Under the pieces are notes generated by a model. That model ran no database searches. It was given only the letters and a program-made list of their open reading frames with translations, and was not told the DNA's origin. From an uncultured Sulfolobales archaeon (lineage in GTDB: Archaea > Thermoproteota > Thermoprotei_A > Sulfolobales > NBVN01), in the NCBI GenBank assembly GCA_938045815.1, contig CALIBI010000062.1:1-32343 (forward strand): a stretch of 32,343 bases of DNA, read 5' to 3'. A program made the position numbers and the translations under genes. Shown here one piece after another: positions 149-32,343 of the stretch. Position 1 is the stretch's first letter. Each line of letters begins with the position of its first letter.

Positions 149-149
149 T

Positions 150-2142: not shown

Positions 2143-2447
2143 AGTAAAAACACACCTAATTCCTTATATCTAGTAGTAGTTCAGTTAACCGTTAACAAAT
2201 TAACAGTTAACGTTAACACAACACTAAACACCAGATTTACTGAGTCACGTCACTTCAATCCCTAAGTAAAGAATGGGGTCATTGGGGGTCATGAGGTTTT
2301 CAATTATTATACTAAGTTCTCAACCCCATGGATCTGGGGGTTGTAGGGGGGATCATGGTTACATGGTAACATGAGGTGGTGATTTTTTGCCGGGGTGGGC
2401 CTGCGCTTATAGCCGTGTAACCCGTGTAATCGCGCCCCTAGCCTGGG
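1882..2447. other. Non-coding interval with palindromic clusters
   Basis: I see no gene here. The interval holds the second copies of the repeats described at 1398-2142, the GTTAAC cluster at 2184-2217, and a near-palindrome at about 2352-2372 (GGTTACATGGTAACATG). Base composition is AC-rich on the + strand up to about 2230 and then drifts to the high GC of the neighbouring pseudogene. Confidence 0.4.
2184..2217. repeat. Cluster of four GTTAAC palindromes
   Basis: GTTAAC occurs at 2184-2189, 2191-2196, 2206-2211 and 2212-2217, with an imperfect ATTAAC between the two pairs, so the whole 34-base element is itself close to palindromic. It could be a binding site for a dimeric or tetrameric regulator or a replication-initiator-like iteron of the decayed element. 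No gene start lies close enough to make it an obvious operator. Confidence 0.4.
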
Positions 2448-3187
2448 TTATTTGTTGGGCTGCTCCTCCGCCTCGTCCTCCAAAAACTCTAGGAGCTTGT
2501 CTTTGGTGACTATTATGCCCCTCACCGGCATGCCCCTGACCTTCACGACCCCGTATTCCCAGCCGAGCTTCTCTGTCATGCTTCTCAGGTCGTACGGTAT
2601 GCTCAGCTCTTTTCTCAGGGCTGTTGTTATGACCAGCGTGTCCTTGTTTTCCTCAGCATGTAGGGTATGAGGTTGGCTGTTAGTAGGGCTGCGAACCTTG
2701 TTCTGAGGCTTTCCTCGGGGTGGGTTTTGCCTAGTTGGCGTGTGTATCTCTCGTTTATATCGGCATGGATCCTGGCTCTCAGGGCCTCCAGCACCTCTTC
2801 CCTATGCTCTTCAGCGGTTTCTCCGGCAACGAGTTCTTCAACCCATTCCCAGCCCTCCCCCTCCAACCCAGCGTCCCTGATGGCTGTCTGGAGGAGTGTC
2901 TGGACCGCGGTTTCTCACGGCTGTCTCAGCAGCTCCATGTTCTCCCTCAGCTTGGAGTAGGCGTGGGTGCCCAAGTGTTTCAGTGTCTCGAGCCTGGGCT
3001 TAGCCCTGGTCTCGAACTCCCTTATCCTATCTTCTCTGAGCCTGTCGTGGTATGAGAACCTGATCACTAGCAGTCTTCTGAACGCCCCCGGGTCCTCGGC
3101 TACCCTGAAGGGTAGGTAGTTGCATGTCATTAGCAGCGGACTCAGGCTCGGTATTGACTTGTATATGCCCCCTCGATCCTCCCCCAG
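2448..3187 (-). pseudogene. Virus/plasmid-type AAA+ helicase C-terminal region, GC-rich pseudogene
   Basis: On the minus strand from about 3187 one reads GIYKSIPSLSPLLMTCNYLP, then a segment with FRRLLVIRF, then a helical region and a C-terminal winged-helix-like tail (KLGWEYGVVKVRGMPVRGII, ending VTKDKLLEFLEDEAEEQPNK) that stops at 2448. 'LLMTCNYLP' fits a sensor-1 Asn and 'FRRLLVIRF' an arginine-finger segment of SF3/D5-like helicases of archaeal viruses and plasmids (inference from motif order; Walker A and B are not present). Damage is visible: a TGA at 2915-2917 that interrupts otherwise continuous coding (probably Trp in the ancestor), a frameshift near 2655, and loss of the 5' part at about 3187, where both frame and GC content change. 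The block is much richer in GC than its surroundings, which points to horizontal origin. Confidence 0.6.
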
Positions 3188-3277
3188 CTATCACAACGTT
3201 AAAAACCTTAACTTTCTTCGCACATCCTCTGCAGAGCTTAGAAGTGTTCGCGATTAATAAGTACTGTTACTATACCT

Positions 3278-3529
3278 TTAAGCTATTTTCTTAGCAGTTC
3301 TTTCAGTTTTTTCTTTAAGTATCTTAGAGTATTCTTCAGTTACTTTATCTGCAGTCCTCTCTAACTCAGAAGGATCAAGACTCTCTAGAACCTTCTTAAC
3401 AAATTTCAGAGCACACGTTTTGCTGTGGAAGTTGTAGGTGTTTCTCCCAAAACTTATGAGGATTCCTTGCCCTACACTAAACTTTCTCCCGCACACAACA
3501 CACGTGAGTTTCTCACCCAAAGCAAACAC
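3278..3529 (-). CDS. Small TRASH-like zinc-finger protein
   Basis: 83 residues starting at GTG 3529. The N-terminal half carries CVVC (residues 10-13) and then HSKTC about 25 residues later, i.e. a C-x2-C...H-x3-C pattern resembling TRASH/YHS-like treble-clef fingers that bind metal. The second half (from about residue 42) is a charged helix, probably a coiled coil. The family is used in archaea as metal-sensing or nucleic-acid-binding modules; the specific role is unknown. It lies upstream, on the same strand, of nothing obviously related and is separated from dphB by about 75 bases containing AT-rich sequence. Confidence 0.6.
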   Translation of the reverse strand: MFALGEKLTCVVCGRKFSVGQGILISFGRNTYNFHSKTCALKFVKKVLESLDPSELERTADKVTEEYSKILKEKTERTAKKIA

Positions 3530-3605
3530 CTAAACAATTACGGGGCTTCTAGCTAATATCTTTATTGCTGTATAGCTAGCGTGTAGGGGTGCTTAAGAAT
3601 CCTTA

Positions 3606-4424
3606 CTAAGTCAGTCGGCAATACTTCCTGGAAATTATTTGAGTAATTTCCTCCTCCATGAAATGCATTTGAGGTGATGTTATTACTAACGTGTGAGGTC
3701 CTTCGTGAGTGGGGAGCTCCATAAGGTCTTTAAGAGTCCCGAAACATATTCTCTGTTCCTCCCCGCACAGACCAGATACCGCGACGGCTCTTCTAGACTC
3801 ACTTAAGACACCCTCCCTCCTCATACTTTCTAGCTGGAGAAGTATCTCTACGGCTTCCTTAACCTGCATCTTAACTCCTTTCTCAAGATCTATTTCTGTG
3901 AGGAGGGGTGTGTGCAGATTTCTTAAGTCGTTGTCTTTTATGACATCGTAGGGGTATTCGGAAATGATGCCTGATTTCGGGTAAGTTAGAGTTACGATTT
4001 TGCCTATCTTGTAAACCATGAGGCCTGACATGGTGAGCGCGTTAGGTATTATGCCTGGTGCAGGCACTACCTCGAAATCTATCCCTCTCCTACTAACTTC
4101 GCTTAGGAGAGATACGTGGGTAGTCGCGTCCAGAGGATTCCCCGGAACCACCAACACTACTTTAAGTCCTTCTAAAGCAGGCTTTATGAGGGTTTCTAAG
4201 AATCTCTCCTCAATATCCTCACGCCCTAGAAACACTGCTTCTTTACCGGTATGAGACTTTAAGAAACTCCTTAAATCACCTAAAACAACACTAGTGTAGG
4301 AATCCACGTAAACTATATCAGCTTCTAAGATCTTCTTAATACCTCTTAAGGTAATCAAGTCTACTGAAAGTCCCGCACCAACAAGAACTAGTTTTCCTCC
4401 CACGTCTTTACCCACCCTAACCAC
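3606..4424 (-). CDS. dphB: Diphthine synthase (diphthamide methyltransferase)
   Basis: This SAM-dependent enzyme methylates the amino-carboxypropyl-histidine of elongation factor 2 (second step of diphthamide synthesis, cytoplasmic). The 272-residue protein matches the class III (tetrapyrrole-methylase-fold) DphB pattern: VLVGAGLS near the N-terminus, ADIVYVDSYTS, the GREDIEE segment, VPGNPLDATTH at about residue 95, VVPAPGIIPNALTMSGL, and a C-terminal ITSPQMHFMEEEI. Length is usual. The GTG at 4424 gives a slightly long N-terminus; an internal GTG (VGGKLVLVG) is possible. dph2, the first enzyme of the pathway, is encoded at 9104-10120, so two diphthamide genes lie within 6 kb. The next gene upstream (4437-4904) ends 13 bases away and may be cotranscribed. 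Confidence 0.95.
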   Translation of the reverse strand: MVRVGKDVGGKLVLVGAGLSVDLITLRGIKKILEADIVYVDSYTSVVLGDLRSFLKSHTGKEAVFLGREDIEERFLETLIKPALEGLKVVLVVPGNPLDATTHVSLLSEVSRRGIDFEVVPAPGIIPNALTMSGLMVYKIGKIVTLTYPKSGIISEYPYDVIKDNDLRNLHTPLLTEIDLEKGVKMQVKEAVEILLQLESMRREGVLSESRRAVAVSGLCGEEQRICFGTLKDLMELPTHEGPHTLVITSPQMHFMEEEITQIISRKYCRLT

Positions 4425-4436
4425 AATTCAGGGATC

Positions 4437-4904
4437 TCACGACGCATGTTCGGTTGACTGCTCATTACCTGACGAGACTATCGCGTAACCAGAATACCTT
4501 AACGCACTCACTTCAGTTCCTACTAACTTAGCTACCTCAGCCACGTAATCTGCCAGCTTCCTGGTTTCATCAGCTAACTTAACTTTATAGAAGACTGAAA
4601 TCCCGTCACTCCTCACAATCACTTCTCCCCCGGATTTTATGAGTGCTGGGTAATACTTAGTGAAGAAACTTAATGCCTCAATATCTCTAGAGATCGCGAT
4701 TTCTAAACGCACCCACTCAATCAACTCAACCCCACCTAAGTACGAGAAAATAACGTTAACGTGTGGTAGTATCTGAGAATTAGTTACGAAAGATATTATA
4801 GCTTCCTTAAACCCGCTAGATTCTAAATCACTCAATATCCATTCTAAATCCTCTAAAGACACTAAACCCCCAATAAAATCGATCAGCTTCCCTAAAGGAA
4901 ACAT
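4437..4904 (-). CDS. Conserved-looking unknown protein, 155 aa
   Basis: I do not recognise the family. The ATG start gives MFPLGKLIDFIGGL; the first 100 residues are predicted mostly helical with hydrophobic faces (WILSDLESSGFKEAIISFV, VELIEWVRLEIAISRDIEAL) and the last 50 contain two beta strands around GGEVIVRSDGISVFYKVK. There are no cysteines, no signal peptide and no clear membrane helix. It lies 13 bases upstream of dphB and about 70 bases downstream of rpoP on the same strand, so rpoP-this-dphB may be one transcript. Codon usage matches its housekeeping neighbours, which argues that it is real. Confidence 0.7.
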   Translation of the reverse strand: MFPLGKLIDFIGGLVSLEDLEWILSDLESSGFKEAIISFVTNSQILPHVNVIFSYLGGVELIEWVRLEIAISRDIEALSFFTKYYPALIKSGGEVIVRSDGISVFYKVKLADETRKLADYVAEVAKLVGTEVSALRYSGYAIVSSGNEQSTEHAS

Positions 4905-4974
4905 GAAACTATCGTTCCCTCGCTTACCTTTCTTAAGTGCGGCTCAGCACGCTACACGCGTCTCTGTTAGTAAA

Positions 4975-5166
4975 TCAAACACCACTAACTCTCTTAAGAC
5001 CTGGTCTGCGCGCCTTAACTATTATCCTGAAACCGCAGTAAGGACACCTTAGAAACGTGTAGCCCTCTCTCTCCTCAGCTTTAACGAAGCTTTCAAGACC
5101 TTCCTCAAACGTGAATTCCTTGCCGCATTTCCAGCACTTATAAACTATATTCCTCAACTCACTCAA
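4975..5166 (-). CDS. rpoP: DNA-directed RNA polymerase subunit P (Rpo12/Rpb12)
   Basis: This 63-residue zinc-ribbon subunit of archaeal RNA polymerase helps join the Rpo3/10/11 assembly platform. The sequence shows YKCWKCGKEFTFEE, RCPYCGFRIIVKARRP and LKRV at the C-terminus: the C-x2-C...C-x2-C zinc site and the invariant R-R-P tail of Rpb12. It is about 15 residues longer than the shortest archaeal versions because of a loop between the two CxxC pairs (ESFVKAEEREGYTF). A TATA-like element (reverse strand TTAAATAC, about 5202-5215) lies near 40 bases upstream of the ATG at 5166. Confidence 0.9.
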   Translation of the reverse strand: MSELRNIVYKCWKCGKEFTFEEGLESFVKAEEREGYTFLRCPYCGFRIIVKARRPGLKRVSGV

Positions 5167-5448
5167 TACTGCTACCCTCCCCTACCACAACTATACGTAG
5201 CTTAAGACGTATTTAAGGTTTAAAGACTGAAAACTAAGCACGAACACTCCTCATCAGAACATGAGTAATGTCGGAGTAGGATTGACTCCTTTTCTCGTGT
5301 TTTATTCTTAGCGATGATTTCAGGGCTGCCTAGTAATTCTTGTAGTGGAGGTTGAGTCAGCTCTCATGTTTAAGGGCCGTAAAAACCAAACAATGAATTC
5401 TCCGTGATTAATCACCTCGAGTCTGTGGGGTGGCGAAACTCGTGTCAG

Positions 5449-6009
5449 TTATTTAGAGCTGATAGTCTGAATCCCTAATAACTCTCTGAGTTTATTCAGT
5501 CTCTTTTTACCTTCAATTAGTGATTCGTTAGTCACCCTCACTATCTCTTCTGCTTCATTTTCTTTTAGTAGTGTGTGCTGACCTATTTTGAGTAAGTGCG
5601 TGAGTCGAATACCTGTTTTGAGCTCCACGATGATGCCTTTCTCTTTATTTATGGATAGTATTCCAGAATGCTTCATCCCTGATTCTCTCGCTATCATGAG
5701 TAGCTTCTGCGCTGACCGCATATTTAACGCGGACGCGTGTATTATCGGTCCTGTCACAACGAGCCACAGTCTCTTAAGTGTAGGTACGTTGAGGATTTCA
5801 AGAAATTCCTCCACCGTTATCGGTTGGTGTTTTTTGAAGATTATGGATGAGCCTCTCCTCTCCCACGGTAGGTTCCCGTCTATGAAGGTAATTCTGCCAC
5901 TGCAGGAACTTATGGTGTACAGATCTTCGAATTCGAAGAGTTTCTTAAGGATATCAAGTATATCCGTGTCTAAGTAACCTATCTCTAAATCCTCTATGAG
6001 TCGCTTCAT
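5449..6009 (-). CDS. taw3: tRNA wybutosine-modifying protein Taw3
   Basis: Taw3 is the archaeal counterpart of yeast Tyw3, which methylates the tricyclic imidazopurine at position 37 of tRNA-Phe during wyosine synthesis. Family hallmarks visible in the 186 residues: SSCSGRITF at about 34-42, the W-rich LPWERRG, a conserved GPIIHASALNMRSAQKLL region at about residue 87, ESGMKHSGIL, and GIRLTHLL near the C-terminus. The ATG at 6009 is followed at once by a family-like N-terminus. It is divergently arranged with the PhoH-like gene; the AT-rich block at 6076-6090 could serve both. A Trm5-type enzyme acting at the same tRNA nucleotide is encoded at 7465-8322. Confidence 0.9.
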   Translation of the reverse strand: MKRLIEDLEIGYLDTDILDILKKLFEFEDLYTISSCSGRITFIDGNLPWERRGSSIIFKKHQPITVEEFLEILNVPTLKRLWLVVTGPIIHASALNMRSAQKLLMIARESGMKHSGILSINKEKGIIVELKTGIRLTHLLKIGQHTLLKENEAEEIVRVTNESLIEGKKRLNKLRELLGIQTISSK

Positions 6010-6078
6010 TAGTTTCTCCTTACGTAGCTTCCACTTAACAGGATCTACGAGAGGCAGCTCAGCACACCTAAGTGAAAA

Positions 6079-6088
6079 TTATTTAAGG
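6079..6088 (+). promoter_or_regulatory. TATA box for the PhoH-KH gene
   Basis: TTATTTAAGG lies 33-42 bases before the ATG at 6121, the expected archaeal TATA position for a short-leader mRNA. A GGTGTGGGAG stretch just before the ATG can act as a ribosome binding site. Confidence 0.55.
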
Positions 6089-6120
6089 AACCTAATATGA
6101 GTTAGTTCTGGTGTGGGAGA

Positions 6121-7287
6121 ATGCTAGAGAAGATAGAAGCTATGACTCCAGGTCAGGAAAGACTTAAAGAAGCACTTAAAGACGATTCATACCCTATCGT
6201 GGGGATTTTCGGACCTACAGGAGTTGGTAAGTCTTTATTTGCTTTAGCGTACGGGATCGGTTCAGTGAGTGAGGGGAAGTATAAGAGATTAATAGTAATT
6301 AGGCCAGTCATAGACGTGACGACAGGTAAGGAAATCACGATAGCTGAGTCAGGATCGCTGTTTATGGAGCTCTCGAAACAGTACGTAACAGATGTCTTGA
6401 GCGGCTTAATGACTTGGGAAGAGATAAAGAAGCTAGTAGATGATGGCAAGATAACTTTCGCAGACAGCCACTACTTAAAAGGCAGAACATTCGATAACTC
6501 AATAGTTTTCATAGATGACGCGCAATCATTGAAACTAGAGTCACTCATAGAAGCTATAGTTAGGGTAGGCAAGAACAGCAGGTTAATAGTGGCTGCAGAC
6601 CCAATATTCCAGGCTTTAAGAAGTAAACATCAAGACCCAACCTCAGTCATACGAGAGATTCTAGCAGGCGAGGTTAGAGCTATCGTGATTGATTTAGGAA
6701 TAAAAGACATAGTTAGGGAGGGTGCTAGGATAGGTCTAAGACTACTCATGGAGTACATACTCAGAACTAGGAAACTCACCGAGGCAGAGCAAAAGACTCT
6801 CGAGGTTGTTAGACTGAAATCACCTGACGCTGACGTCATAACAGTTCTTGACACGGGCAGGTTAGCTAGTAATTACGGGATTTCCTTAGAGCACGTGCCT
6901 AACTACCTGATAGTAGTTAAGAAGGGTCATCTAGGCAGGCTAGTTGGTAAGGGGGGTGAGAGAATCACGTCTATAGAGAAAGAACTAAACACGAGAGTGA
7001 GGGGTGTTGAGCTAGACACAGACATCTCAGAACTGATAAGAGCGGTACATCCAGTGTCTTGGGTTTGGAAGAGAGTAACAGACATAGATTTTAAGGGCGC
7101 CTACGCATCTATTGAGGTAGAGGAAGGAGTTCTCGGAGCTTTCGTGGGTCAGAAAGGATCTTACGTAAGATTTCTAGACGCCATAACTAGGGAGTTATTC
7201 GGTATAGGAGTCAAAGTCACCGCCACAAGCAAAGAATCAAGACCTAAGCCTGGAATGAAAACCAAGAAATCTAAGCGGAGCTCATAA
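6121..7287 (+). CDS. PhoH-like ATPase with two C-terminal KH domains
   Basis: The first ~210 residues form a PhoH-type P-loop ATPase: Walker A GPTGVGKS at 31-38, a 'RPVIDVTTGKEI' segment replacing the usual RPAV...G, and Walker B IVFIDD at 128-133 followed by AQSL, then a sensor-like LIVAADP at about 155-161. Two KH RNA-binding folds follow, marked by VGKGGERI (275-282) and VGQKGSYVR (342-350). The last 20 residues are a basic tail. Archaeal PhoH-KH proteins are taken to be RNA-dependent ATPases or helicases in RNA metabolism, which is a family-level inference. The gene stands alone between taw3 and trm5, both RNA-modification genes. Confidence 0.85.
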   Translation: MLEKIEAMTPGQERLKEALKDDSYPIVGIFGPTGVGKSLFALAYGIGSVSEGKYKRLIVIRPVIDVTTGKEITIAESGSLFMELSKQYVTDVLSGLMTWEEIKKLVDDGKITFADSHYLKGRTFDNSIVFIDDAQSLKLESLIEAIVRVGKNSRLIVAADPIFQALRSKHQDPTSVIREILAGEVRAIVIDLGIKDIVREGARIGLRLLMEYILRTRKLTEAEQKTLEVVRLKSPDADVITVLDTGRLASNYGISLEHVPNYLIVVKKGHLGRLVGKGGERITSIEKELNTRVRGVELDTDISELIRAVHPVSWVWKRVTDIDFKGAYASIEVEEGVLGAFVGQKGSYVRFLDAITRELFGIGVKVTATSKESRPKPGMKTKKSKRSS

Positions 7288-7344
7288 GGTTAACTAAGAC
7301 CCTGCACGAATTACTTCAGAGCACGTAATTAAGAGTTGTGGTGA

Positions 7345-7414
7345 TTTCTCCATACATAGAAATCTTCTATATATGGAGAAATTCTCCATAGCAAGAAGAT
7401 TCACTTTCTCCATA
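7345..7414. repeat. Nested palindrome with four TTTCTCCATA-type motifs
   Basis: In the convergent gap between the PhoH-KH gene and trm5, TTTCTCCATA occurs at 7345-7354 and 7405-7414, ATTCTCCATA at 7381-7390 and the inverse TATGGAGAAA at 7372-7381. The middle two form TATGGAGAA-A-TTCTCCATA, a 9-bp stem with one central base. An outer pair AATCTTCT / AGAAGATT (7360-7367 and 7395-7402) encloses it symmetrically with 3-base internal loops. It could be a dimeric regulator site, a transcript-end hairpin for both convergent genes, or a small mobile-element remnant. Confidence 0.55.
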
Positions 7415-7464
7415 ACGAGATACGTGCCAGCAATCACTAAATATCTTGTCTAGAGCTGCTACGA

Positions 7465-8322
7465 CTAATCTCGGCATACCTTTATGTCTAGGACTACTTG
7501 ATAGTATCTAGGTCCGACGCTCCTGACTACTCTCTCGTACAGGAACTCGTAACGTACGTTGTGTTTTCTGAGTTCTTCGCTAAATATCTTCATCCCGTTA
7601 AGCAGGGCTTCTTCTTTCTCTTCAGCGCTCACGAAATCGTAAGCGTGAATAACGCCGCAATCTCTTAATGCTAGAATAGCGTTCGGTAAGTAGGTGCGTG
7701 AATACTCAGGTAGAGGCATTAATATCCTGTCAGCCATGCCTGCAAACTCTCTCACTATCTGTGAGGCGTCTCCCAACCTAGCCTCAACGACTTCCTCAAC
7801 ACCGTTTAACTTTATGTTTTCTCGCATTAACTCGTAGGCTTGAGGGTTAATATCTATGGATATGATCTTTTTTGGTTTCGCTTTCTTGGCTATTATGATG
7901 GAGAAGAGACCAGCACCAGCAAACATGTTTATTATGAATTCACCTGGTTTTACTAGATTAGCTATCCTCTTATGTTCGTAATTAAGTGTTGGTGAAACGT
8001 ACACGGAGTTTATGTCTACTTTGAAAACACACCCGTGTTCTCGGTAGGTGGTTGTGCTCCTATTCTCGCCAGCCAGAAAAATGTGTTCTCTAATTCTGTA
8101 CTGAGTTCTCACGGAGGTTATTGCTAACCAAACTGACTTGACGTATGGTAACCTCTTAATAATCTCCTCACCTAGAGGTACGAAAACCTCAGCAGGGAGT
8201 CCCGGAGGCTTCCTGATTACTGCTATATCACCTATTATCTCTATCCTACCCCATATCTTCTTAGCGTTCTCCTCACCCAAGACTTCCTCAGCGATTTTCC
8301 TCAACAGCTTACCTCTACTCAT
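7465..8322 (-). CDS. trm5: Trm5-family tRNA (guanine37-N1) methyltransferase
   Basis: This SAM-dependent class I methyltransferase is expected to act on G37 of tRNA; in Crenarchaeota some Trm5a members also methylate the wyosine intermediate. Visible order: an N-terminal D2-like domain (KIWGRIEIIGDIAVIRKPPG, then the KSVWLA strand and TQYRIREH), FKVDINSVYVSPTLNYEHKR, motif I NMFAGAGLFSI, acidic motif II SIDINPQAY, ENIKLNGV, GDAS and the catalytic-loop-like DRILMPLPE. From the start chosen here (ATG 8322) it is 285 residues. An upstream in-frame start at 8385 would place the AT-rich promoter inside the gene, so I reject it; GTG at 8331 is possible. Taw2 is the nearest alternative, but the loop and domain order fit Trm5 better. 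Confidence 0.85.
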   Translation of the reverse strand: MSRGKLLRKIAEEVLGEENAKKIWGRIEIIGDIAVIRKPPGLPAEVFVPLGEEIIKRLPYVKSVWLAITSVRTQYRIREHIFLAGENRSTTTYREHGCVFKVDINSVYVSPTLNYEHKRIANLVKPGEFIINMFAGAGLFSIIIAKKAKPKKIISIDINPQAYELMRENIKLNGVEEVVEARLGDASQIVREFAGMADRILMPLPEYSRTYLPNAILALRDCGVIHAYDFVSAEEKEEALLNGMKIFSEELRKHNVRYEFLYERVVRSVGPRYYQVVLDIKVCRD

Positions 8323-8353
8323 CCCAATCACGATGAGATAACTCGAAACTCTT

Positions 8354-8370
8354 GATTTAAATTTTAAATG
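8354..8370. promoter_or_regulatory. Divergent promoter between trm5 and the DUF2258 gene
   Basis: GATTTAAATTTTAAATG is the only strongly AT-rich block between the two divergent genes. Its centre lies about 40 bases from the trm5 ATG (8322) and from the ATG at 8404, as expected for archaeal TATA boxes, and it is near-palindromic so could be read in both directions. Confidence 0.6.
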
Positions 8371-8403
8371 TTTCAATAAAAACAATAGTAATTGGTGGTA
8401 TTT

Positions 8404-9099
8404 ATGCCTACCATGAGAACCGGGTTAGTTCTTGCAGGAGGGTACGCAACTAAGATTAGGAGGGTGGTCTTTGCTCAGCTAGCTGAAGATATTAGAGAGA
8501 AGAGAATAGACAGCAAAACGGTAGCTTTCCACGTAGCTCAGCTTAATAAGTTCTTGTTCACTGTGCTGGTTGATAGACTTAAGATAGATAAGAGGGATGC
8601 TGTGAGATTAAGTATTGATTACGAGGTAAGTTACGACAAGATAGTATGGAAATTCGATACGTTGAGGGTGGAAGTCTTTAGGAGGGTGTCTGACGAGGAG
8701 GTAAGTACTGTTCTGTCCACGCTAGTGCCTGAAGCTGAGAGAATAATGGCTGCGCCTGTAGAGTATGCTGTAGAGTTTGCTGGTGAGACTAGCGACGGAG
8801 ACAAAATATACGCTCTGAAAGTCGGGGAAGGTGAGGGAGGGATTCTTGAGCTTATCCCGGTAGATGAGGAGTTCCTATATATTAAGATCGGTGTCTTGCT
8901 GGTGCCTGAGCCTACTAAGATAGAGAAAGTGAGGGTAGCGCTTGAGGGCAGGTCGTATGAGGAAGCTCTGAAGGCGTCAATTAATGACTTACTAAATAGA
9001 GGCAAGCCTATAACACCTAGTGAGGCAGACTCAATAATAAGTTACGTGAGGAGCAGACTAGGTGAGGTAAGACCTGAAGTAAGAATAGAGTATGAGTGA
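8404..9099 (+). CDS. DUF2258 / ThermoDBP-related protein
   Basis: The sequence MPTMRTGLVLAGGYATKIRR with VAFHVAQLNKFLF, DAVRLSIDYEVSYD and a C-terminal helix ITPSEADSIISYVRSRLGE fits a crenarchaeal family that I know as DUF2258, which includes the single-stranded DNA-binding protein ThermoDBP and its relatives. I am fairly but not fully sure of the family name. The N-terminal ~150 residues would be the core alpha/beta domain. The tail is a helix of the kind that drives oligomerisation in ThermoDBP-related proteins. The start at ATG 8404 is chosen because GGTGG sits 6 bases upstream; further-upstream TTG/GTG codons would use up that site. DNA binding is inferred from family only. Confidence 0.65.
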   Translation: MPTMRTGLVLAGGYATKIRRVVFAQLAEDIREKRIDSKTVAFHVAQLNKFLFTVLVDRLKIDKRDAVRLSIDYEVSYDKIVWKFDTLRVEVFRRVSDEEVSTVLSTLVPEAERIMAAPVEYAVEFAGETSDGDKIYALKVGEGEGGILELIPVDEEFLYIKIGVLLVPEPTKIEKVRVALEGRSYEEALKASINDLLNRGKPITPSEADSIISYVRSRLGEVRPEVRIEYE

Positions 9100-9103
9100 T
9101 TAG

Positions 9104-10120
9104 TCACCAGGGAAAAACGTAAGGCTCAAAAACTTTTTTTAATGCCATAAACGCCTCACCAGGTGTTAAGACAGGTTTTTCGTAGTCGTGGAAGTCTTCT
9201 ATAGGTAATCTAGGGCAGGAGGTAATAACTATCGCGTCAATGATGCTTGAGTCAATATTGGTTAGTAGGTCCCTCGTGAGATAGGAGGTCACGGCCACGT
9301 AGTACTTGCCTTCAGAACTAGTTATGAGTCTCGTAAGCTCGCTAACTATCCACGGTCTGTACTGCCCCCCACTACCCTCGATTATTAGCCATGACCTAGC
9401 TTCTAAAGACTTCATCACCTTAGCAAGCCTAGACTTAAGAACTCTGAAAATGTAGTTGCTTAAGAAGCTGTAGGTGTTTCCGTAAGGATCTAGTGAGATC
9501 ACTTCTTTACTGCCACTAAGTCTTAAACCAACACCTAACGCGTGGAATCTCCCGCCAGCAACTACTAGGAAAGCGTCAGCTAAGTCTCTCATTAAATCTA
9601 GGCTGGAGAACCAACACCCAAACACTACCTCAGCCTCCCTATTAATTACTTCGAACCCGTTACTACGGAGTAAACCAATAATTTCTTTGGTTAGGTCTAC
9701 GTGTTGAGCAGTCGTGTATACAGCTAGCTTCACGTAGTCACGTTCTCTCAGGTCCTTAATTAACGAATCCAGGACTTCTCGACTAGGTTTGGTTTTTGAT
9801 TGTAAATCAACGTAAACTATTTTGTCTGGTGGTGCCCAGTAAGGGTATTTCCTGTGCCCCAGATGGATTACTAGGTCGTACCTCTCAATAACACCTAGGT
9901 CTAGGAGGCATGAACCGAAAGAAGGGCTCGCATCTACGTGTATCTCTACCCCAACTAGTACCTTCTTCAGATAATCTACTAGCTCGTAAGACTTGCTCTT
10001 GAAGCCCTCAGGAACTTGAAGCAGTACCTTAGAAGGTTTCCTTTCCTTAACTACTCTGGAAAGCTCGCTTAAATCAATGTAGTAATAATCGAGGAAAGAT
10101 TCCCTACCGAGCAAGCTCAT
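9104..10120 (-). CDS. dph2: Diphthamide biosynthesis enzyme Dph2 (radical SAM-like 3-amino-3-carboxypropyl transferase)
   Basis: Dph2 uses a [4Fe-4S] cluster to cleave SAM and transfer the 3-amino-3-carboxypropyl group to the target histidine of elongation factor 2. The 338-residue protein has the three domain repeats and the three cluster cysteines of archaeal Dph2: C71 in FGSCLLD, C169 in FGCWFS and C302 in TSCPRLPIED. LLQVPEGF near residue 35 and HLGHRKYP near 86 are further signatures. It ends 5 bases from the DUF2258 stop (convergent). Its start overlaps the end of the L10e gene by 4 bases (ATGA), so translation is probably coupled to a ribosomal protein gene. Confidence 0.93.
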   Translation of the reverse strand: MSLLGRESFLDYYYIDLSELSRVVKERKPSKVLLQVPEGFKSKSYELVDYLKKVLVGVEIHVDASPSFGSCLLDLGVIERYDLVIHLGHRKYPYWAPPDKIVYVDLQSKTKPSREVLDSLIKDLRERDYVKLAVYTTAQHVDLTKEIIGLLRSNGFEVINREAEVVFGCWFSSLDLMRDLADAFLVVAGGRFHALGVGLRLSGSKEVISLDPYGNTYSFLSNYIFRVLKSRLAKVMKSLEARSWLIIEGSGGQYRPWIVSELTRLITSSEGKYYVAVTSYLTRDLLTNIDSSIIDAIVITSCPRLPIEDFHDYEKPVLTPGEAFMALKKVFEPYVFPW

Positions 10121-10668
10121 TTCTGAGCTTCCGCTGGATTGCTGGAGGCTGCGGGACTAGAAGGTTTTAATTCTCTTACCTGCAGCATTGTTCTAATACC
10201 TATCTTATCTCTGAAGCGTCTTAAAGCTTCCTTAGCTTGAGGTAGGTTCTTAGCAGAGATCCTGACTTCCGCCACCACACTCCCGTAGAAAACTCTCGCA
10301 CCAACACCTATAGGTTTGCCGAAAGCTTTACGCATGCCGTCCTGAAGCCTGTCAGCTCCTGCGAAAGCCATCATCTTATTCTCTCTGAGGACGTGGTGGG
10401 GGTATTGCCTAACCATGAAGAAGTACTTATCTTCACCAACGTACTTGCTTAAGTATTTGTGAGCCATGACTCTAGCGGCTTCAAGCCCGTTATGCCTTAA
10501 CACAGCGTTCTCTAAAGAAACTAACTCAATAACTAGGTCGTAATTTCCGTGAGGGTTACCCATAACAAACTTATTTATTTTTGGTTGCGGTATACCGTCT
10601 ATGTACTCCCTTCTAGTGTAGGGGGGTTTATGCATGTCTTTGTAGCATCTAGCAGGTCTTAGCGGCAC
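10117..10668 (-). CDS. rpl10e: Large-subunit ribosomal protein uL16 (L10e)
   Basis: uL16/L10e sits near the A-site tRNA elbow of the large subunit. The sequence shows the standard archaeal features: N-terminal basic MPLRPARCYKDMHKPPYTRR, FVMGN, VMAHKYLSK, FFMVRQYPHHVLRENKMMAFAGADRLQDGMR split across two segments, and GKPIGVGARVFYGSVVAEVRI. At 183 residues it carries a short extra Ala/Pro/Ser-rich tail (SSPAASSNPAEAQK) beyond the usual end. Translation starts at GTG 10668, supported by AGGTGA 7 bases upstream. The gene overlaps dph2 by 4 bases. Confidence 0.96.
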   Translation of the reverse strand: MPLRPARCYKDMHKPPYTRREYIDGIPQPKINKFVMGNPHGNYDLVIELVSLENAVLRHNGLEAARVMAHKYLSKYVGEDKYFFMVRQYPHHVLRENKMMAFAGADRLQDGMRKAFGKPIGVGARVFYGSVVAEVRISAKNLPQAKEALRRFRDKIGIRTMLQVRELKPSSPAASSNPAEAQK

Positions 10669-15290: not shown

Positions 15291-15359
15291 CAAACCTCAA
15301 AACCTTCCGTGCTTATTTCTCTGCCTTAAACCCTATTTTAGAGTTTAAGGAAATTTCCC

Positions 15360-15959
15360 TTGGGTGTGGTTGTGGGTAGGGCTATAGTAGTCTCTGGAAC
15401 TCCGGGTGTTGGTAAGACTCTGGTCGCGACAGTGCTCGCGTCCAGGCTAGGTCTTGACTACCTAAATCTATCTGACCTGGTTGTGAGGGAATCACTATAT
15501 GTTGGTGTGGATGAGGCTAGAGGTTCTCTCGTGATAGATGAGGAACGCTTAGTAAGGAGGCTTGCTGAGTTGCTGAGTAGGAGTGAGTCAGATGTTGTGG
15601 TGGATAGTCATTACGGCGAAATAATTCCTGAGGAACTGGTTAGGATTATTTTCGTGCTTAGACTGAACCCAGCAGTACTGTATGAGAGACTAGTTTCGAG
15701 AGGGTGGAGCGTGGAGAAGGTGAAAGAGAACGTGGAAGCCGAGATCTTAGGTGTATGCACTTACAACGCGTTAAGCGAGCACTCAGCATCTAAGGTATGT
15801 GAGGTGGACGTGACTGGCAAGGAAGTAGAGGAGGTAGTCGTAGAACTCCTAGACATACTTAACAACGTTAAGAAGTGTGAGGTGTGGGTTGACTGGCTTT
15901 CTCAGGAGTTCCTGCATGAATTCATCATTAAGCTCCTTAACACACCTACTAACGGCTAG
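15360..15959 (+). CDS. AK6/Fap7-type adenylate kinase, ribosome biogenesis factor
   Basis: A P-loop NMP kinase related to human AK6/yeast Fap7, which binds uS11 and helps final maturation of the small ribosomal subunit. Visible: Walker A SGTPGVGKT near residue 12, the YLNLSDLV segment, a VVDSHYGEIIP motif (usually D-x-H-x) and the VLRLNPAVLYERLVSRGW lid region, then an NVEAEIL helix. It is 199 residues, slightly long, because of a C-terminal helical extension (WVDWLSQEFLHEFIIKLL). Start codon is TTG 15360 or GTG 15366/15372; no strong ribosome site distinguishes them. It lies just upstream of rpoG on the same strand. Confidence 0.82.
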   Translation: MGVVVGRAIVVSGTPGVGKTLVATVLASRLGLDYLNLSDLVVRESLYVGVDEARGSLVIDEERLVRRLAELLSRSESDVVVDSHYGEIIPEELVRIIFVLRLNPAVLYERLVSRGWSVEKVKENVEAEILGVCTYNALSEHSASKVCEVDVTGKEVEEVVVELLDILNNVKKCEVWVDWLSQEFLHEFIIKLLNTPTNG

Positions 15960-15978
15960 GACTCATGATGCCGGGACC

Positions 15979-15988
15979 ATTTTTAAGG
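15979..15988 (+). promoter_or_regulatory. TATA box for rpoG
   Basis: ATTTTTAAGG precedes the TTG/TTG/GTG start cluster at 16005-16013 by about 25 bases, predicting a leaderless transcript beginning at or next to the start codon. Confidence 0.5.
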
Positions 15989-16004
15989 GTTTGCTAAGTA
16001 ATAT

Positions 16005-28315: not shown

Positions 28316-28729
28316 TTAGGTTGTGGGTAGTGTTTTCAGGATTCTTGAGGCTGTGTTGCTTAAGTCCTTGATTTTCGTTAACTCGCTGTCTATGAAGTCT
28401 GCTTCCTCACGCATGCCGTTGTTGAGTAGGTGTGTTTTAAGGTCTGTTAGTATGTCTTCCTCGTCATTTGTTAGCACCATCGTGATGTAGGTGATGAGTG
28501 TTTTCATGTGGTCTAGGAATTCTCTGCGTATGTTGGGTGACTCACATAACTCAATGCTTTTCTTCAGGTTATTCCTAGTCTTGCTGACCTTGATTATGTA
28601 ATTCCTCACCACGTCGTAGGAGATCCTGCCGTTGAGGAAATCCTCGGTTAAGCTCCTCAGTCTAGCTAGTTCTTCATTCCTCTTTAAAGTGTAGTCTTCC
28701 AGCTTCCTGAATATGATTGAGTCTTCCAT
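28316..28729 (-). CDS. Unknown helical protein, 137 aa
   Basis: I do not recognise it. It is predicted almost entirely helical (MEDSIIFRKLEDYTLKRNEE, LARLRSLTEDFL, FLDHMKTLITYITMVL) with a single Cys and no membrane helix. Its ATG at 28729 shares the last base of the upstream gene's stop (TAATG), so the two are translationally coupled. It lies between a DUF47 gene and a CRISPR array; I see no nuclease or RAMP motif that would make it a Cas protein. Confidence 0.6.
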   Translation of the reverse strand: MEDSIIFRKLEDYTLKRNEELARLRSLTEDFLNGRISYDVVRNYIIKVSKTRNNLKKSIELCESPNIRREFLDHMKTLITYITMVLTNDEEDILTDLKTHLLNNGMREEADFIDSELTKIKDLSNTASRILKTLPTT

Positions 28730-29088
28730 TAAGTAGACCTCACGGTAGCCATGGAGTTATCGGAAACCCCGCTCCTCCGCATGAATTCCTCGTTAACCCA
28801 GACCTCACTTTCTGGGACGTCATCAGAAACGAGAACACTCAACCCAAACCTCTTACCGGAAACAGATAACTGAATCTTCTCCTTAACACCCAACTCACTA
28901 ACCAGCTTACTAGAAACATAAACAGAACCCTCAGGAACACCCACCCTCAACCTAACCCTAACCCTCCTCTCAGAAACCCTCCTCACACCCCTCCCAAGCA
29001 CCTCACTAGCAGGAGGTATCACAGCCACCAACTGCTTAACATCCCTCTTCCGAGAAGACTGAGAACCACCACCCTCACTACTCAGCAC
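28729..29088 (-). CDS. Unknown beta-rich protein, double-psi-barrel-like
   Basis: From the start I favour (GTG 29088) the protein is 119 residues. An open frame continues upstream to 29181, but that part is a run of W, C, F and L encoded by skewed AC/GT repeat-flank DNA, and a TATA-like TATTTATTA (reverse strand, about 29118-29127) places the transcript start near 29095. The core repeats a strand pattern (VRVRLRVGVPEGSVYVSSKL, VSELGVKEKIQLSV, VWVNEEFMRRSGVSDNSM) like CDC48-N or molybdopterin-binding double-psi barrels (inference). Coding-strand codons are extremely G/T-rich. Coupled to the next gene by TAATG. Confidence 0.55.
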   Translation of the reverse strand: MLSSEGGGSQSSRKRDVKQLVAVIPPASEVLGRGVRRVSERRVRVRLRVGVPEGSVYVSSKLVSELGVKEKIQLSVSGKRFGLSVLVSDDVPESEVWVNEEFMRRSGVSDNSMATVRST

Positions 29089-29174
29089 ACACCACCACAA
29101 AAATAACAACCTAACACATAATAAATACAGACCACACCAAACAAACCAAAAACACAAACACCCAACCACCCACT

Positions 29175-29847
29175 CTCCCAATTCATTCTTGTTTGATACA
29201 CAGCATATGACATTATGTCACTGGGTGTGGGCTATCACTTTCAATTCATTCTTGTTTGATACTTTACTACACGGGAAGTAAGCGGCAAGCCTTAACCAAC
29301 TACTTTCAATTCATTCTTGTTTGATACAATAATCTTGGCAGAGAGGAAACCGTCTACGGATGCGCCTTTCAATTCATTCTTGTTTGATACACGCCATGTG
29401 CGTGCCCTTACTAGCTTAACGACTACGAGCTTTCAATTCATTCTTGTTTGATACTACATGATCCTTGACAGGCATGACTGGTATGTGTTAACGTCCTTTC
29501 AATTCATTCTTGTTTGATACTCTGCGTGACCCACACGTGCCCCCCGCAGAAAGTGGAGTTCACTTTCAATTCATTCTTGTTTGATACATATTATACTCAG
29601 AGTTAGTCCTACTAAGGCAAGTTGAACTTTCAATTCATTCTTGTTTGATACAGGAGGTATGACTATGGGTTTATGGTGAATGTCTGTTTCAACTTTCAAT
29701 TCATTCTTGTTTGATACACGTCTGCGTGAACAGGTTGGTGACGGTCGTGTTTGCTCTTTCAATTCATTCTTGTTTGATACCTGGAGTGACCTAAGGAACG
29801 GAAAGATACCACAGTTAGTGGTCTTTCAATTCATTCTTGTTTGATAC
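29175..29847 (-). CRISPR. CRISPR array 1: 11 repeats, 10 spacers, 25-nt repeat
   Basis: In transcript orientation the 25-nt repeat runs GTATCAAACA...GAATTGAAAG. Repeat starts on the + strand are 29175, 29238, 29303, 29366, 29430, 29496, 29563, 29627, 29693, 29756 and 29823; spacers are 38-42 nt. The outermost repeat (29175) has two C-for-T changes, which marks the old, trailer end on the left; the leader at 29848-29966 is on the right. The transcript therefore runs on the minus strand and ends each repeat in ATTGAAAG, the standard 8-nt crRNA 5' handle of Crenarchaeota. I see no obvious spacer match within this window by eye. The array lies 87 bases from the 28729-29088 gene. Confidence 0.97.
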
Positions 29848-29966
29848 CGTTTTGTGCGTGATTTTTGTGCGTGTTTTCTCCTCTAATTATTACTTCCTAC
29901 GCGTAGTTATTTAAATTTTACATTAGGAGTTTTGTTGGGAGGGGTGTTCTACGCGTGGTTACTCCT
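29848..29966 (-). promoter_or_regulatory. Leader of CRISPR array 1 (copy L of an inverted leader pair)
   Basis: Read toward the array (minus strand) it has a TATA box (AAATTTAAATAA, about 29906-29918) with a transcript start expected near 29885-29890. Two CTACGCGT(A/G)G palindromes at 29897-29906 and 29949-29958 flank the box, 52 bases apart, likely regulator sites. Positions 29879-29966 match 31009-31096 on the opposite strand without gaps at 76 of 88 positions. The other side of this element runs into cas6, whose ATG follows directly at 29968, so the block may drive both. Confidence 0.85.
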
Positions 29967-29967
29967 G

Positions 29968-30882
29968 ATGGTGTTTTTTAGGTTTTTTGTTTGTGTTTTG
30001 TTGGTGGTTGTTTTGTTGGTGGTTAGGTTTGTGTTGAGGGCTGTGTCTGGTGGTGGGTTGCCTTGGTTTGTTGGTCATGAGTGTAGGGCTGGTTTTATTG
30101 GTTTGGTTTCGAGGCTTGATTCTGGTTTTGGTTCGGTTCTTCATGATGGGGTTGAGGTTGGTGGTAGGAGGAGGGCTGTTTTCTCGCTTAAGCCTCTGGT
30201 GTTTGATTCTGGGTATGAGGTTGTTTTTCCTGGTGGGTCTTGTTCTAGGTTTTTGGTTGATGGTAATGTTGTTTTTGAGCCTGGTGCTCGGGGTTCGATG
30301 AGTGTTGTTTTTCTTGTGGGGGATTCGGGTGTTAGGTTTCTGCAGGTGTTGCTTTCGAGTGTTGGTGAGTTGAGGTTTAGTGTTAAGGGGTATGAGTTCG
30401 TGATTGAGAGGGTGGGGTTTGAGCTTGTTGACCCCGCCAGCGTCGTTAGGTCTGGCGAGCTTCTGGATGAGGTAGATATTGAGTTCTTAACACCAACCTA
30501 CTTCAACCCGATGCAGGGGGACGCTAAGTATAAGGTGCTGTACCCAGACACCACACTCATGCTGGCCTCACTCATATCAACATCACACCAACTAACAAAC
30601 ATCAACTACCCGAAACCAGAAGAACTAGCTAAATACGTATACATCAGCGGACTAGACATCAAAACACCACACATAGAGAAAACAGAACACGAAACACCAA
30701 CAGGATTCGTCGGATGGGCCAAACTAAGAATAAGAGAAGAAGCAAACGAAGAAACAAGAAAAACAATAACAGGACTACTAAAACTAGGCGAAATAACAAA
30801 CATAGGAGGCAACAGAAGCGGCGGGTACGGAGTAATAAAAATAAAGAAACCCACAAAAACTAAAACAACAAATTCAGAATAA
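29968..30882 (+). CDS. cas6: CRISPR pre-crRNA processing endoribonuclease Cas6
   Basis: Cas6 cuts the CRISPR transcript inside each repeat, leaving the 8-nt ATTGAAA(G/C) handle. From ATG 29968 the protein is 304 residues, two ferredoxin-like RAMP folds. The first has the family start LLVVRFVLRAVSGGGLPWFV, GHECRAGFIGL and a conserved LHD near residue 60. The second ends with the C-terminal glycine-rich loop IGGNRSGGYGVIKI. Earlier in-frame TTG codons fall inside the leader, so I exclude them; initiation within the TTG/GTG run up to 30025 cannot be excluded. The gene is remarkable for composition: codons are extremely G/T-rich up to about 30420 and A/C-rich from about 30530. No other cas gene is present here. 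Confidence 0.88.
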   Translation: MVFFRFFVCVLLVVVLLVVRFVLRAVSGGGLPWFVGHECRAGFIGLVSRLDSGFGSVLHDGVEVGGRRRAVFSLKPLVFDSGYEVVFPGGSCSRFLVDGNVVFEPGARGSMSVVFLVGDSGVRFLQVLLSSVGELRFSVKGYEFVIERVGFELVDPASVVRSGELLDEVDIEFLTPTYFNPMQGDAKYKVLYPDTTLMLASLISTSHQLTNINYPKPEELAKYVYISGLDIKTPHIEKTEHETPTGFVGWAKLRIREEANEETRKTITGLLKLGEITNIGGNRSGGYGVIKIKKPTKTKTTNSE

Positions 30883-31008
30883 ATAAAGCAAACACACACC
30901 ACACACCCTCAGAACCCCTCCCCAATCAAACCCCTCTCACAATCATACACATAATCCCTTAATCAACCACACAAAATAACAAAGAGAACTAATATAAAAC
31001 CAATAATT
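30883..31008. other. AC-rich gap between cas6 and leader R
   Basis: No gene. The + strand is dominated by A and C (runs such as ACACACCACACACCCTC), continuing the bias of the 3' half of cas6. TAATATAAAAC at about 30991-31001 could be a TATA element. The bias in non-coding DNA shows that codon choice alone is not its cause. Confidence 0.6.
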
Positions 31009-31112
31009 AGGAGTAGCTACGCGTGGGGTACCTCTTCCGACAGAACTCCTAATGTAAGACTTAAATAACTACGCGTAGGAAGTAATAATTAGAGGAAAAA
31101 ACACACAAAACA
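31009..31112 (+). promoter_or_regulatory. Leader of the orphan CRISPR array (copy R)
   Basis: Reverse-strand copy of the array 1 leader. CTACGCGTGG at 31017-31026 and CTACGCGTAG at 31069-31078 keep the 52-base spacing. The TATA box is CTTAAATAA at about 31060-31068, with an expected start near 31090. Over 88 bases there are no gaps and 12 differences from copy L, all transitions; the 36 bases nearest the array (31061-31096) are identical. Confidence 0.85.
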
Positions 31113-31196
31113 GTATAGAATGAATTGAAAGCATAAGTAACTTAACACTGTTGGGTTTATATACACACATAGTATCAAACAAGAATGAATTGAAAG
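31113..31196 (+). CRISPR. Orphan one-spacer array of the array 1 repeat family
   Basis: Transcript orientation is +. The first, leader-proximal repeat is GTATAGAATGAATTGAAAG (31113-31131), the family repeat with six bases (CAAACA) deleted after GTAT. A 40-base spacer (31132-31171) and one intact 25-nt repeat (31172-31196) follow. Both repeats end in ATTGAAAG. The next 98 bases up to the second array hold nothing recognisable. Confidence 0.9.
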
Positions 31197-31294: not shown

Positions 31295-32343
31295 ATTTCA
31301 AGTCCTTATAGGTATCCTATTGACTCTAGGGTTTTCATACTCCTACCTTGCCATTTCAAGTCCTTATAGGTATTCTACTGACGTGTGTTTTTTCCTAGTT
31401 TGCGTAGAGCGAATACCTGTTTCAAGTCCTTATAGGTATTCTACTGACTTTGGCATGCTTTGAGGCTAAATAAGTCATGTCATGTTTCAAGTCCTTATAG
31501 GTATTCTACTGACGGGGGCAAGACTGAAGGCTGGATTGTTCTGGGTACCGTTTCAAGTCCTTATAGGTATTCTACTGACGTAACCTATACTCTGGGTTTT
31601 GTGTTAGGTGTTTCGCGTTTCAAGTCCTTATAGGTATTCTACTGACAATACCCTCCGCACCTTACGTCACGCCCGCCCCGAGTTTCAAGTCCTTATAGGT
31701 ATTCTACTGACTTTTGAGACAGAGAAAGTTTACACGCTGAGTTTGCTGTTTCAAGTCCTTATAGGTATTCTACTGACCTAAGCATAATAAACACACCAAC
31801 CGTTGTCCCAATGTTTCAAGTCCTTATAGGTATTCTACTGACTCTCTATACTTGGCTCAGGCTCTTGAACACATTTATGAGTTTCAAGTCCTTATAGGTA
31901 TTCTACTGACGTCTTATACGTAGTTAACTCACGTTCTTGAAAACGCGTTTCAAGTCCTTATAGGTATTCTACTGACAGGTTTTACAGCATCCAGTGCCCA
32001 AAGAGTGGTTAAAGTTTCAAGTCCTTATAGGTATTCTACTGACCAGACTCGCTAACCGGCTTCTCGGGTTGTAGGCGAAGGTTTCAAGTCCTTATAGGTA
32101 TTCTACTGACGCCACCATCACCGCACACACCACCACTGAAGGACTGTTTCAAGTCCTTATAGGTATTCTACTGACGCACGTCCCACATCCTTAGGATCGT
32201 GATCCACGCGGGTTTCAAGTCCTTATAGGTATTCTACTGACGTGTTACTGTCTTCTATGTAAGCCCTCACTGCAGTATGTTTCAAGTCCTTATAGGTATT
32301 CTACTGACGGTTGCGATGGTGGGGTTGTGCGTGGTTTGCACCA
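31295..32343 (-). CRISPR. CRISPR array 2: at least 16 repeats of a different 30-nt family, continues past the window
   Basis: On the + strand the repeat reads GTTTCAAGTCC...TATTCTACTGAC; its complement ends in CTTGAAAC, the handle-like end, so transcription runs on the minus strand from a leader beyond 32343. Repeat starts: 31295, 31353, 31419, 31484, 31550, 31617, 31682, 31748, 31813, 31881, 31947, 32014, 32081, 32146, 32212 and 32279. Spacers are 35-38 nt except the first, which is only 28 nt. The two leftmost repeats are degenerate (three changes and one change), as expected at the old end. The last 35 bases of the window are a further, possibly incomplete spacer. The repeat differs from array 1, so a second CRISPR-Cas family, or Cas6 specificity for both, is implied. 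Confidence 0.97.

What the first reader, a model, noticed from the sequence alone, without database searches (positions are those of the whole stretch)
29879..31096. Two inverted CRISPR leaders differ only by transitions, 11 of 12 with the keto base on the + strand
Seen directly: 29879-29966 and the reverse complement of 31009-31096 align over 88 positions with no gap and 12 differences. All 12 are transitions. In 11, copy L has T or G where copy R read in the same leader orientation has C or A, which means the + strand carries G or T at that site in both copies. A-to-G and C-to-T on one strand are the two deamination outcomes, so the pattern looks like strand-specific deamination of + strand DNA, not ordinary drift. 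The 36 bases nearest the repeats, with TATA box and palindrome, are untouched.
Basis: partly seen in the sequence, partly recalled or inferred. Interest (0 to 1): 0.85.

Follow-up and report, generated by a model that had tools for sequence, protein, structure and literature searches.

The report
Strand-skewed mutation footprint around CRISPR arrays
In many heat-loving archaea the DNA on both sides of CRISPR arrays (the stored memory of past viruses) has been rewritten over about 1,000 bases by a one-strand mutation bias pointing away from the array, a scar no paper I could search describes and that probably records how these arrays are cut, copied or updated.

Summary
The transition-only part is ordinary; the one-sidedness is the edge of something much larger. 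From each CRISPR array outward, the strand running 5'->3' away from the array is G+T-rich over ~0.5-1 kb. In the window the cas6 ORF between the two leaders is 81% G+T in its first half and about 25% from mid-ORF to leader R. Its 4-fold synonymous sites are 71/71 G or T near leader L and 46/51 A or C near leader R. Fifteen of 20 array flanks in this genome exceed 60% G+T outward, against 3% of background windows. The footprint recurs in many families of the order and, weaker, in Pyrobaculum-, Vulcanisaeta- and Thermofilum-like families. It is absent in the Sulfolobaceae-like family, several other lineages and bacterial arrays. It crosses genes of either orientation, flips inside one ORF, fades by ~1.2 kb, and is absent in spacers and ordinary genes. 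So C->T plus A->G accumulate on the outward strand. I infer that DNA processing launched from arrays, probably at spacer integration, exposes or recopies flanks; that step is unproven.

The parts
29175..29847 (-). Left CRISPR array, 11 repeats (crRNA-sense repeat GTATCAAACAAGAATGAATTGAAAG on the - strand); leader on the right, trailer on the left; terminal repeat at 29175 degenerate
29848..29966 (-). Leader L of the left array (TATA-like TTTAAATA, ACGCGT motifs, CTCCTAAT/ATTAGGAG inverted pair); at least 7 further copies elsewhere in the genome
29834..30430 (+). Leader-side footprint of the left array: + (outward) strand G+T-rich (29900-30430: A .10 C .09 G .37 T .44); maximal-scoring segment 29834-30430
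29932..30882 (+). cas6-like ORF (PF10040, E 1.6e-12 at residues 183-301; true start probably near 30022). Codon third positions 98% G/T in the first half and 9% in the second
30545..31008 (-). Leader-side footprint of the leader-R array: - (outward) strand G+T-rich (+ strand A .48 C .26 G .13 T .13); second half of cas6 plus non-coding DNA
31009..31096 (+). Leader R, inverted copy of leader L; the least G+T-rich (outward) of the leader copies compared
31109..31196 (+). Remnant array of leader R: one partial and one full repeat (31172-31196)
28740..29175 (-). Trailer-side footprint of the left array: - (outward) strand G+T-rich (+ strand keto 0.26), distorting the N-terminus of ORF 28729-29181(-); maximal-scoring segment 28821-29181
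31295..32308 (-). Second array with a different repeat (GTTTCAAGTCCTTATAGGTATTCTACTGAC), 16 repeats, trailer end on the left (terminal repeat degenerate), leader beyond the window

Best explanation
The two leaders are the inner edge of a CRISPR-array-centred, strand-asymmetric mutation footprint. Shown: outward from an array, on both sides and most strongly on the leader side, the strand running 5'->3' away from the array has accumulated C->T and A->G. The bias is near saturation at synonymous sites close to the array and fades over ~1 kb, whatever genes lie there. Inferred: DNA-processing events that start inside the array repeatedly open the flanks outward, so that this strand is exposed as single-stranded DNA or recopied many times. 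The most likely trigger is the pair of 3'-OH ends that Cas1-Cas2 spacer integration leaves at the leader-proximal repeat, one priming toward the leader and one toward the array body and trailer; breakage or recombination in the array is an alternative. Strand-displacement synthesis from those ends would give the observed polarity on both sides. Base changes would then come from deamination of the exposed outward strand or from unrepaired mispairs. Confidence: that the footprint is real and mutational, about 0.93; array-launched processing by this route, about 0.45.
For: Window: keto 0.81, 0.25 and 0.26 in the three flanks against a background mean of 0.50. 4-fold sites T50 G21 A0 C0, then A37 C9 G3 T2, Fisher p about 2e-28. 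Own genome: 15 of 20 flanks >0.60 outward, null 3%, p=2.6e-9; contig C5, taken as a background sample, turned out to hold an array with the same pattern. Order-wide averages: leader side mostly 0.6-0.74 within 600 bp, falling to 0.50 by ~1.1 kb; trailer side ~0.60 for 400 bp. 4-fold sites over the skewed genomes: T/(T+C) 0.97 and G/(G+A) 0.81 at 0-300 bp, 0.45 and 0.43 by 1.2-1.6 kb, in genes pointing outward; the same sense, weaker, in genes pointing inward. Locus-specific direction: the cas6 copy on C20 shares the leader-L side but has no second leader near its 3' half. In that half C20->C62 differences are 73 keto->amino against 9 the other way (G>A 34, T>C 29; p=1e-13), that is C->T and A->G on the strand outward from leader R; in the first half the bias reverses, 49 to 18. 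One locus (L082) falls smoothly from 0.94 to 0.50 over 2 kb of what reads as cas4-cas1 coding DNA. Controls: long ORFs 0.507 coding-strand keto, 1 extreme window in 3,366, spacers 0.49-0.50, 23 bacterial arrays 0.50. Polymerase work at integration is documented: DNA polymerase I is needed for adaptation in E. coli (PMC4678826); CRISPR-associated primase-polymerases do strand-displacement synthesis from leader and spacer 3' ends of integration intermediates (PMC8211822).
Against: No experiment links the footprint to integration. Trailer skew does not clearly shrink with array length (rho -0.27, p=0.12). Spacers are unskewed, which needs rapid turnover or protection. Trailer-end repeats, the only sites with a known ancestor, lean the right way but weakly (p=0.06). 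The Sulfolobaceae-like genomes carry cas1 and large arrays yet show no footprint, so a second lineage-specific factor is needed. A->G is nearly as frequent as C->T in cas6, which simple hydrolytic deamination would not give.
Confidence: 0.5

Rival explanations
1. Mismatch-repair asymmetry: the inward strand (3' end at the array) is repeatedly resynthesised, and EndoMS/NucS, which cuts G-T, G-G and T-T but hardly A-C mismatches, removes one class of errors. Surviving A-C mispairs turn C->T and A->G on the outward strand.
For: NucS mismatch preferences as reviewed in PMC8228993. In 60 genomes the 13 without a NucS hit have mean outward keto 0.516 (11 of 13 at or below 0.53) against 0.588 in 47 with it, p=1.2e-4; at family level p=0.03. 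An out-of-sample check on three Acidilobaceae agreed 3/3: unskewed L127 lacks NucS, skewed L128 and L129 have it. It would explain near-equal C->T and A->G.
Against: Post hoc and phylogenetically confounded. G078 lacks a NucS hit yet is strongly skewed (0.66). Many NucS-bearing genomes are unskewed (G059, G057, G306, G244, G259, G234, G311), so NucS is at best necessary, not sufficient. A-C errors are thought rarer than G-T errors.
Confidence: 0.2
2. Strand-specific deamination by a dedicated DNA deaminase or hypermutation system acting on + strand DNA at this locus.
For: C->T plus A->G on one strand.
Against: Polarity follows the array, not the + strand. Divergence inside the skewed coding tract is normal between close strains (1-3.5%), so there is no burst. 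No deaminase family among the window proteins scanned; the rest of the genome was not scanned for one. One enzyme would have to act on both A and C.
Confidence: 0.06
3. Transcription-associated mutation: divergent transcription from the leader and read-through past the trailer expose the non-template strand.
For: The outward strand is the non-template strand for divergent leader transcripts and for read-through at the trailer (inference from geometry).
Against: The polarity flips inside one ORF and ignores gene orientation. Coding strands of long ORFs are at 0.507 keto; 16S rRNA flanks show no array-like peak in two of three genomes and only a mild 3-kb rise upstream in G040. Arrays without the footprint are presumably transcribed too (general knowledge).
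Confidence: 0.15
4. Selection for G+T-rich outward strands as part of leader function, or plain compositional drift.
For: Leaders are conserved non-coding DNA and part of the tract is leader.
Against: The tract runs through coding DNA at synonymous sites in both gene orientations, on the trailer side too, with a distance gradient, and at two-repeat remnants.
Confidence: 0.05

Closest known systems
Strand asymmetry of animal mitochondrial DNA (G+T-rich heavy strand; strand-displacement replication)
   Same: One strand gains both T and G by C->T and A->G transitions; G+T-rich heavy strand and AC-biased third codon positions are stated in PMC1794132, and strand asymmetry is reviewed in PMC3269012 (both listed)
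   Different: Here the range is ~1 kb, bidirectional, centred on CRISPR arrays in archaeal chromosomes, with several foci per genome; displacement synthesis is inferred, not shown
Replication-strand GC/AT skew of prokaryotic chromosomes
   Same: Leading-strand G+T excess is the same chemical sense as the outward strand (general knowledge)
   Different: Chromosome-arm scale and weak there; here kb scale and extreme. A 2026 study of archaeal skews (PMC12999951) does not mention CRISPR in its text
DNA synthesis at CRISPR spacer integration (Pol I gap filling; CRISPR-associated primase-polymerases)
   Same: Polymerase extension from 3' ends at the leader-proximal repeat, strand displacement possible (PMC4678826, PMC8211822)
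   Different: Known synthesis concerns the repeat itself; no kb-scale outward synthesis or mutation footprint is described there
Deaminase hypermutation (APOBEC/AID type)
   Same: Transitions on one strand
   Different: Known enzymes deaminate C (or, separately, A); here both change to a similar extent, gradually and on both sides of arrays

Membership tests
CRISPR array with leader | Regular direct repeats with unique spacers next to a conserved leader | tested here: met
ssDNA-type (mtDNA-like) strand asymmetry | Both C->T and A->G raised on the same strand | tested here: met
   cas6 paralogue comparison: 34 C->T and 29 A->G on the outward strand; 4-fold sites
ssDNA-type (mtDNA-like) strand asymmetry | Gradient with distance from the initiation point | tested here: met
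ssDNA-type (mtDNA-like) strand asymmetry | The affected strand is physically single-stranded or displaced | not testable with these tools
   needs ssDNA mapping
Transcription-coupled skew | Sense follows the transcribed gene's orientation | tested here: not met
   flip within the cas6 ORF; same sense in genes of both orientations
Transcription-coupled skew | Strongly transcribed loci show it | tested here: not met
   three rRNA loci: none array-like, one mild rise upstream in G040
Deaminase hypermutation | Deaminase gene at the locus or shared by carriers | tested here: inconclusive
   none in the scanned window ORFs; genome-wide scan not done
Spacer-integration-linked footprint | Stronger at the leader end, where integration happens | tested here: met
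   leader side reaches 0.74 and extends to ~1 kb, trailer side ~0.60 to 400 bp
Spacer-integration-linked footprint | Trailer skew declines with array length | tested here: inconclusive
   rho -0.27, p=0.12
Temperature-driven hydrolytic deamination | Skew rises with growth temperature | tested here: inconclusive
   16S G+C as proxy: rho 0.16, p=0.43; introns in some 16S genes blur the proxy

The most novel reading that the evidence does not exclude
Spacer integration (or array breakage) in many Thermoproteota launches bidirectional strand displacement or resection-and-resynthesis over ~1 kb with a strand-specific mutation signature, so that every array writes a mutational record of its past activity into its flanks and reshapes the neighbouring genes, cas genes included.
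Probability: 0.4. Interest if true: 0.92.

Novelty: new variant of a known kind. Interest (0 to 1): 0.82.

Why it matters
A kb-scale, bidirectional, near-saturating mutation bias centred on CRISPR arrays means that immune memory carries a local mutational cost. It implies an unrecognised DNA-processing step at arrays in many Thermoproteota. It gives a sequence-only readout (tract length, strength, side) of array activity, marks relic arrays that have lost their repeats, and predicts which strand is exposed or recopied, so the DNA transactions of adaptation in organisms without genetics become testable by comparison alone. It also warns that proteins encoded beside arrays (such as Cas6 here, rich in V, G, F, L in its first half and K, T, N, E in its second) have composition set by position, which can mislead annotation and phylogeny.

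Tried and rejected
Twelve-of-12 transitions as a signal: rejected, about 91% of differences between related genomes are transitions. Polarising the 12 sites with other leader copies: not decidable, all copies are under the same pressure and any polarity gives the same + strand sense. Recent hypermutation burst: rejected for the tract examined, divergence inside the coding part is normal. Temperature proxy from 16S G+C: no significant correlation. Dependence of trailer skew on array length: weak. Y-family polymerase (PF00817): found only in unskewed genomes (five f11 and G306), but several unskewed genomes also lack it. Papers: eight successful searches found no description of such a footprint; most subscription journals and preprints are not covered. 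L241 and L233 look skewed but with the same strand on both sides, that is regional, and were not counted as array-centred.

Full report
Observation. The stated alignment is correct: 88 columns, no gap, 12 differences, all transitions, 11 with L keto and R amino in the same orientation. The one-sidedness has p=0.006. The restriction to transitions is what these genomes do anyway: 168 of 184 differences more than 2.5 kb from the array between G019 and G023 are transitions, so 12 of 12 has a probability near one third.

What surrounds it. A base count along the window showed something much larger. Right of leader L the + strand is 81% G+T from 29900 to 30430; near 30430-30550 this flips, and from 30545 to 31008 it is 25% G+T. 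Left of the left array (28740-29175) it is 26%. The tracts sit against array ends and the flip lies in the middle of one ORF, a cas6 homologue (PF10040). Read outward from each array, the strand running 5'->3' away from the array is the G+T-rich one. The leaders are only the conserved inner edge of these tracts.

Mutation rather than protein selection. In the cas6 ORF the 4-fold synonymous sites near leader L are T50 G21 A0 C0, and near leader R A37 C9 G3 T2; third positions are 98% and 9% G/T. A cas6 copy on contig C20 (74% identical) also starts next to a leader but has no second leader near its 3' half. Over the first half both copies are G+T-rich (0.80 and 0.72); over the second half C62 is 0.28 and C20 0.47. 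There the differences are 73 keto->amino against 9 amino->keto, mostly 34 G>A and 29 T>C (p=1e-13), which is C->T and A->G on the strand outward from leader R. This ties the change to the presence of the nearby leader.

Generality in this genome. The leader has further copies at seven other places. Arrays on C5, C18, C38, C52, C62, C65 and C66 show the same outward skew, on both sides where both can be read. C5 has a different repeat and was taken as a background sample. Of 20 readable flanks of 400 bp, 15 exceed 0.60 G+T outward; 3% of background windows do (p=2.6e-9). The weaker flanks include arrays on C58. A two-repeat remnant on C52 keeps a strong tract.

Generality beyond. In relatives fetched around cas1 genes, most arrays of families f1, f2, f4, f7 and f10 and part of f5 and f9 show the footprint. 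The average leader side is mostly 0.6-0.74 within 600 bp and reaches background by about 1.1 kb; the trailer side is about 0.60 for 400 bp. Thirty of 56 leader flanks have a strong change point in the expected direction; the strongest null stretches fall in L080 and L016, which carry relic or very short arrays. It is absent in f11 and in G031, G029 and G085, and weak in G077. In the wider phylum it is present but weaker in families f23, f31 and f34, present in G203, and absent in many others. Twenty-three bacterial arrays, mostly Chloroflexota, average 0.50. From exact chromosome lengths I believe, from memory and untested, that G040 is Pyrolobus fumarii, G069 Staphylothermus marinus, G063 Aeropyrum pernix, G200 Pyrobaculum aerophilum, G059 Sulfolobus acidocaldarius and G085 Acidilobus saccharovorans. 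Several carriers are single-contig genomes, so the pattern is not an artefact of binning.

Shape. At 4-fold sites pooled over the skewed genomes, outward T/(T+C) runs 0.97, 0.90, 0.74, 0.54, 0.45 and G/(G+A) 0.81, 0.81, 0.51, 0.42, 0.43 from 0 to 1.6 kb in genes pointing outward. Genes pointing toward the array show the same sense more weakly: T/(T+C) 0.82 to 0.48, G/(G+A) 0.64 to 0.49 by 1.2 kb. The C->T component is somewhat the stronger. L082 shows the cleanest gradient, 0.94 to 0.50 over 2 kb through what reads as cas4-cas1 coding DNA (cas1 there is, cas4 from reading only). Between G019 and G023 the skewed coding tract diverges no faster than the rest, as expected of a biased process at equilibrium. 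Spacers are unskewed (0.49-0.50), as expected if they turn over faster than the bias acts. Trailer-end repeats, whose ancestor is the array consensus, lean toward keto gain in skewed genomes (52 to 20 transitions; odds 1.67 after correcting for composition, p=0.06) and not in unskewed ones.

Mechanism. Gene transcription does not explain it: the sense flips within an ORF and ignores gene direction, coding strands sit at 0.507, and rRNA flanks lack it apart from a mild upstream rise in G040. What remains is a process launched from arrays that treats the two strands differently on both sides with the same outward polarity. Spacer integration leaves a 3'-OH pointing into the array at the leader-repeat junction and another pointing to the leader at the far side of the first repeat (general knowledge); synthesis from both that runs past the repeat would displace, and rewrite, the outward strand on each side. 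Polymerase action at integration is documented (PMC4678826, PMC8211822). Long-range extension is my inference. The chemistry could be deamination of the displaced strand or unrepaired mispairs.

A lead on the lineage factor. Genomes without a hit for EndoMS/NucS rarely show the footprint (13 negative genomes, mean 0.516; 47 positive, mean 0.588; p=1.2e-4; family level p=0.03). An out-of-sample check on three Acidilobaceae agreed. NucS cuts G-T but hardly A-C mismatches (PMC8228993), so surviving A-C errors in a resynthesised inward strand would give exactly C->T and A->G outward. But G078 lacks NucS and is skewed, several NucS carriers are not skewed, and the test is post hoc. I hold this at about 0.2.

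Status. The footprint is shown; its mutational nature is very well supported; the link to array processing is the best reading; the enzymes are unknown. No paper found in the accessible library describes it, but that library omits most subscription journals and preprints.

Noticed in passing
L080 (G012 C88) about 2780-3110: Two lone, diverged repeats facing opposite ways with strong outward skew tracts on both sides: apparently relics of arrays, so the footprint may outlive the array.
   Followed up: partly
L016 (G000 C52) 15301-15989: Leader with two repeats and a flank down to 18% G+T on +, one of the strongest tracts in the genome although the array is almost gone.
   Followed up: partly
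window:8392-9099: ThermoDBP-related protein (PF10015 and PF20754), a DNA-binding family of archaea; whether the type of single-strand binding protein correlates with the footprint was not tested.
   Followed up: no
L197 (G040), upstream of 16S rRNA: Outward strand 0.52-0.67 G+T (mostly about 0.6 or more) over 3 kb upstream of the 16S gene, unlike two other genomes; different shape from the array footprint.
   Followed up: no
L233 (G169) and L241 (G346): Arrays inside long regions with a regional strand skew that is not array-centred (L241: same strand on both sides; L233: low outward keto on both sides).
   Followed up: no
L011 (G000 C20) 1-10543: Contig bounded at both ends by nearly identical inverted leaders with cas1 near one end and cas6 near the other: the same inverted-leader architecture as in the window.
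   Followed up: partly
G059, G065, G089, G074, G057, G306: The only genomes of 36 with a Y-family DNA polymerase (PF00817) are all without the footprint.
   Followed up: partly
window:28729-29181: Leftward ORF whose N-terminus (W, C, V, L-rich) looks like a translation of the skewed trailer tract; the real start is probably further in.
   Followed up: no
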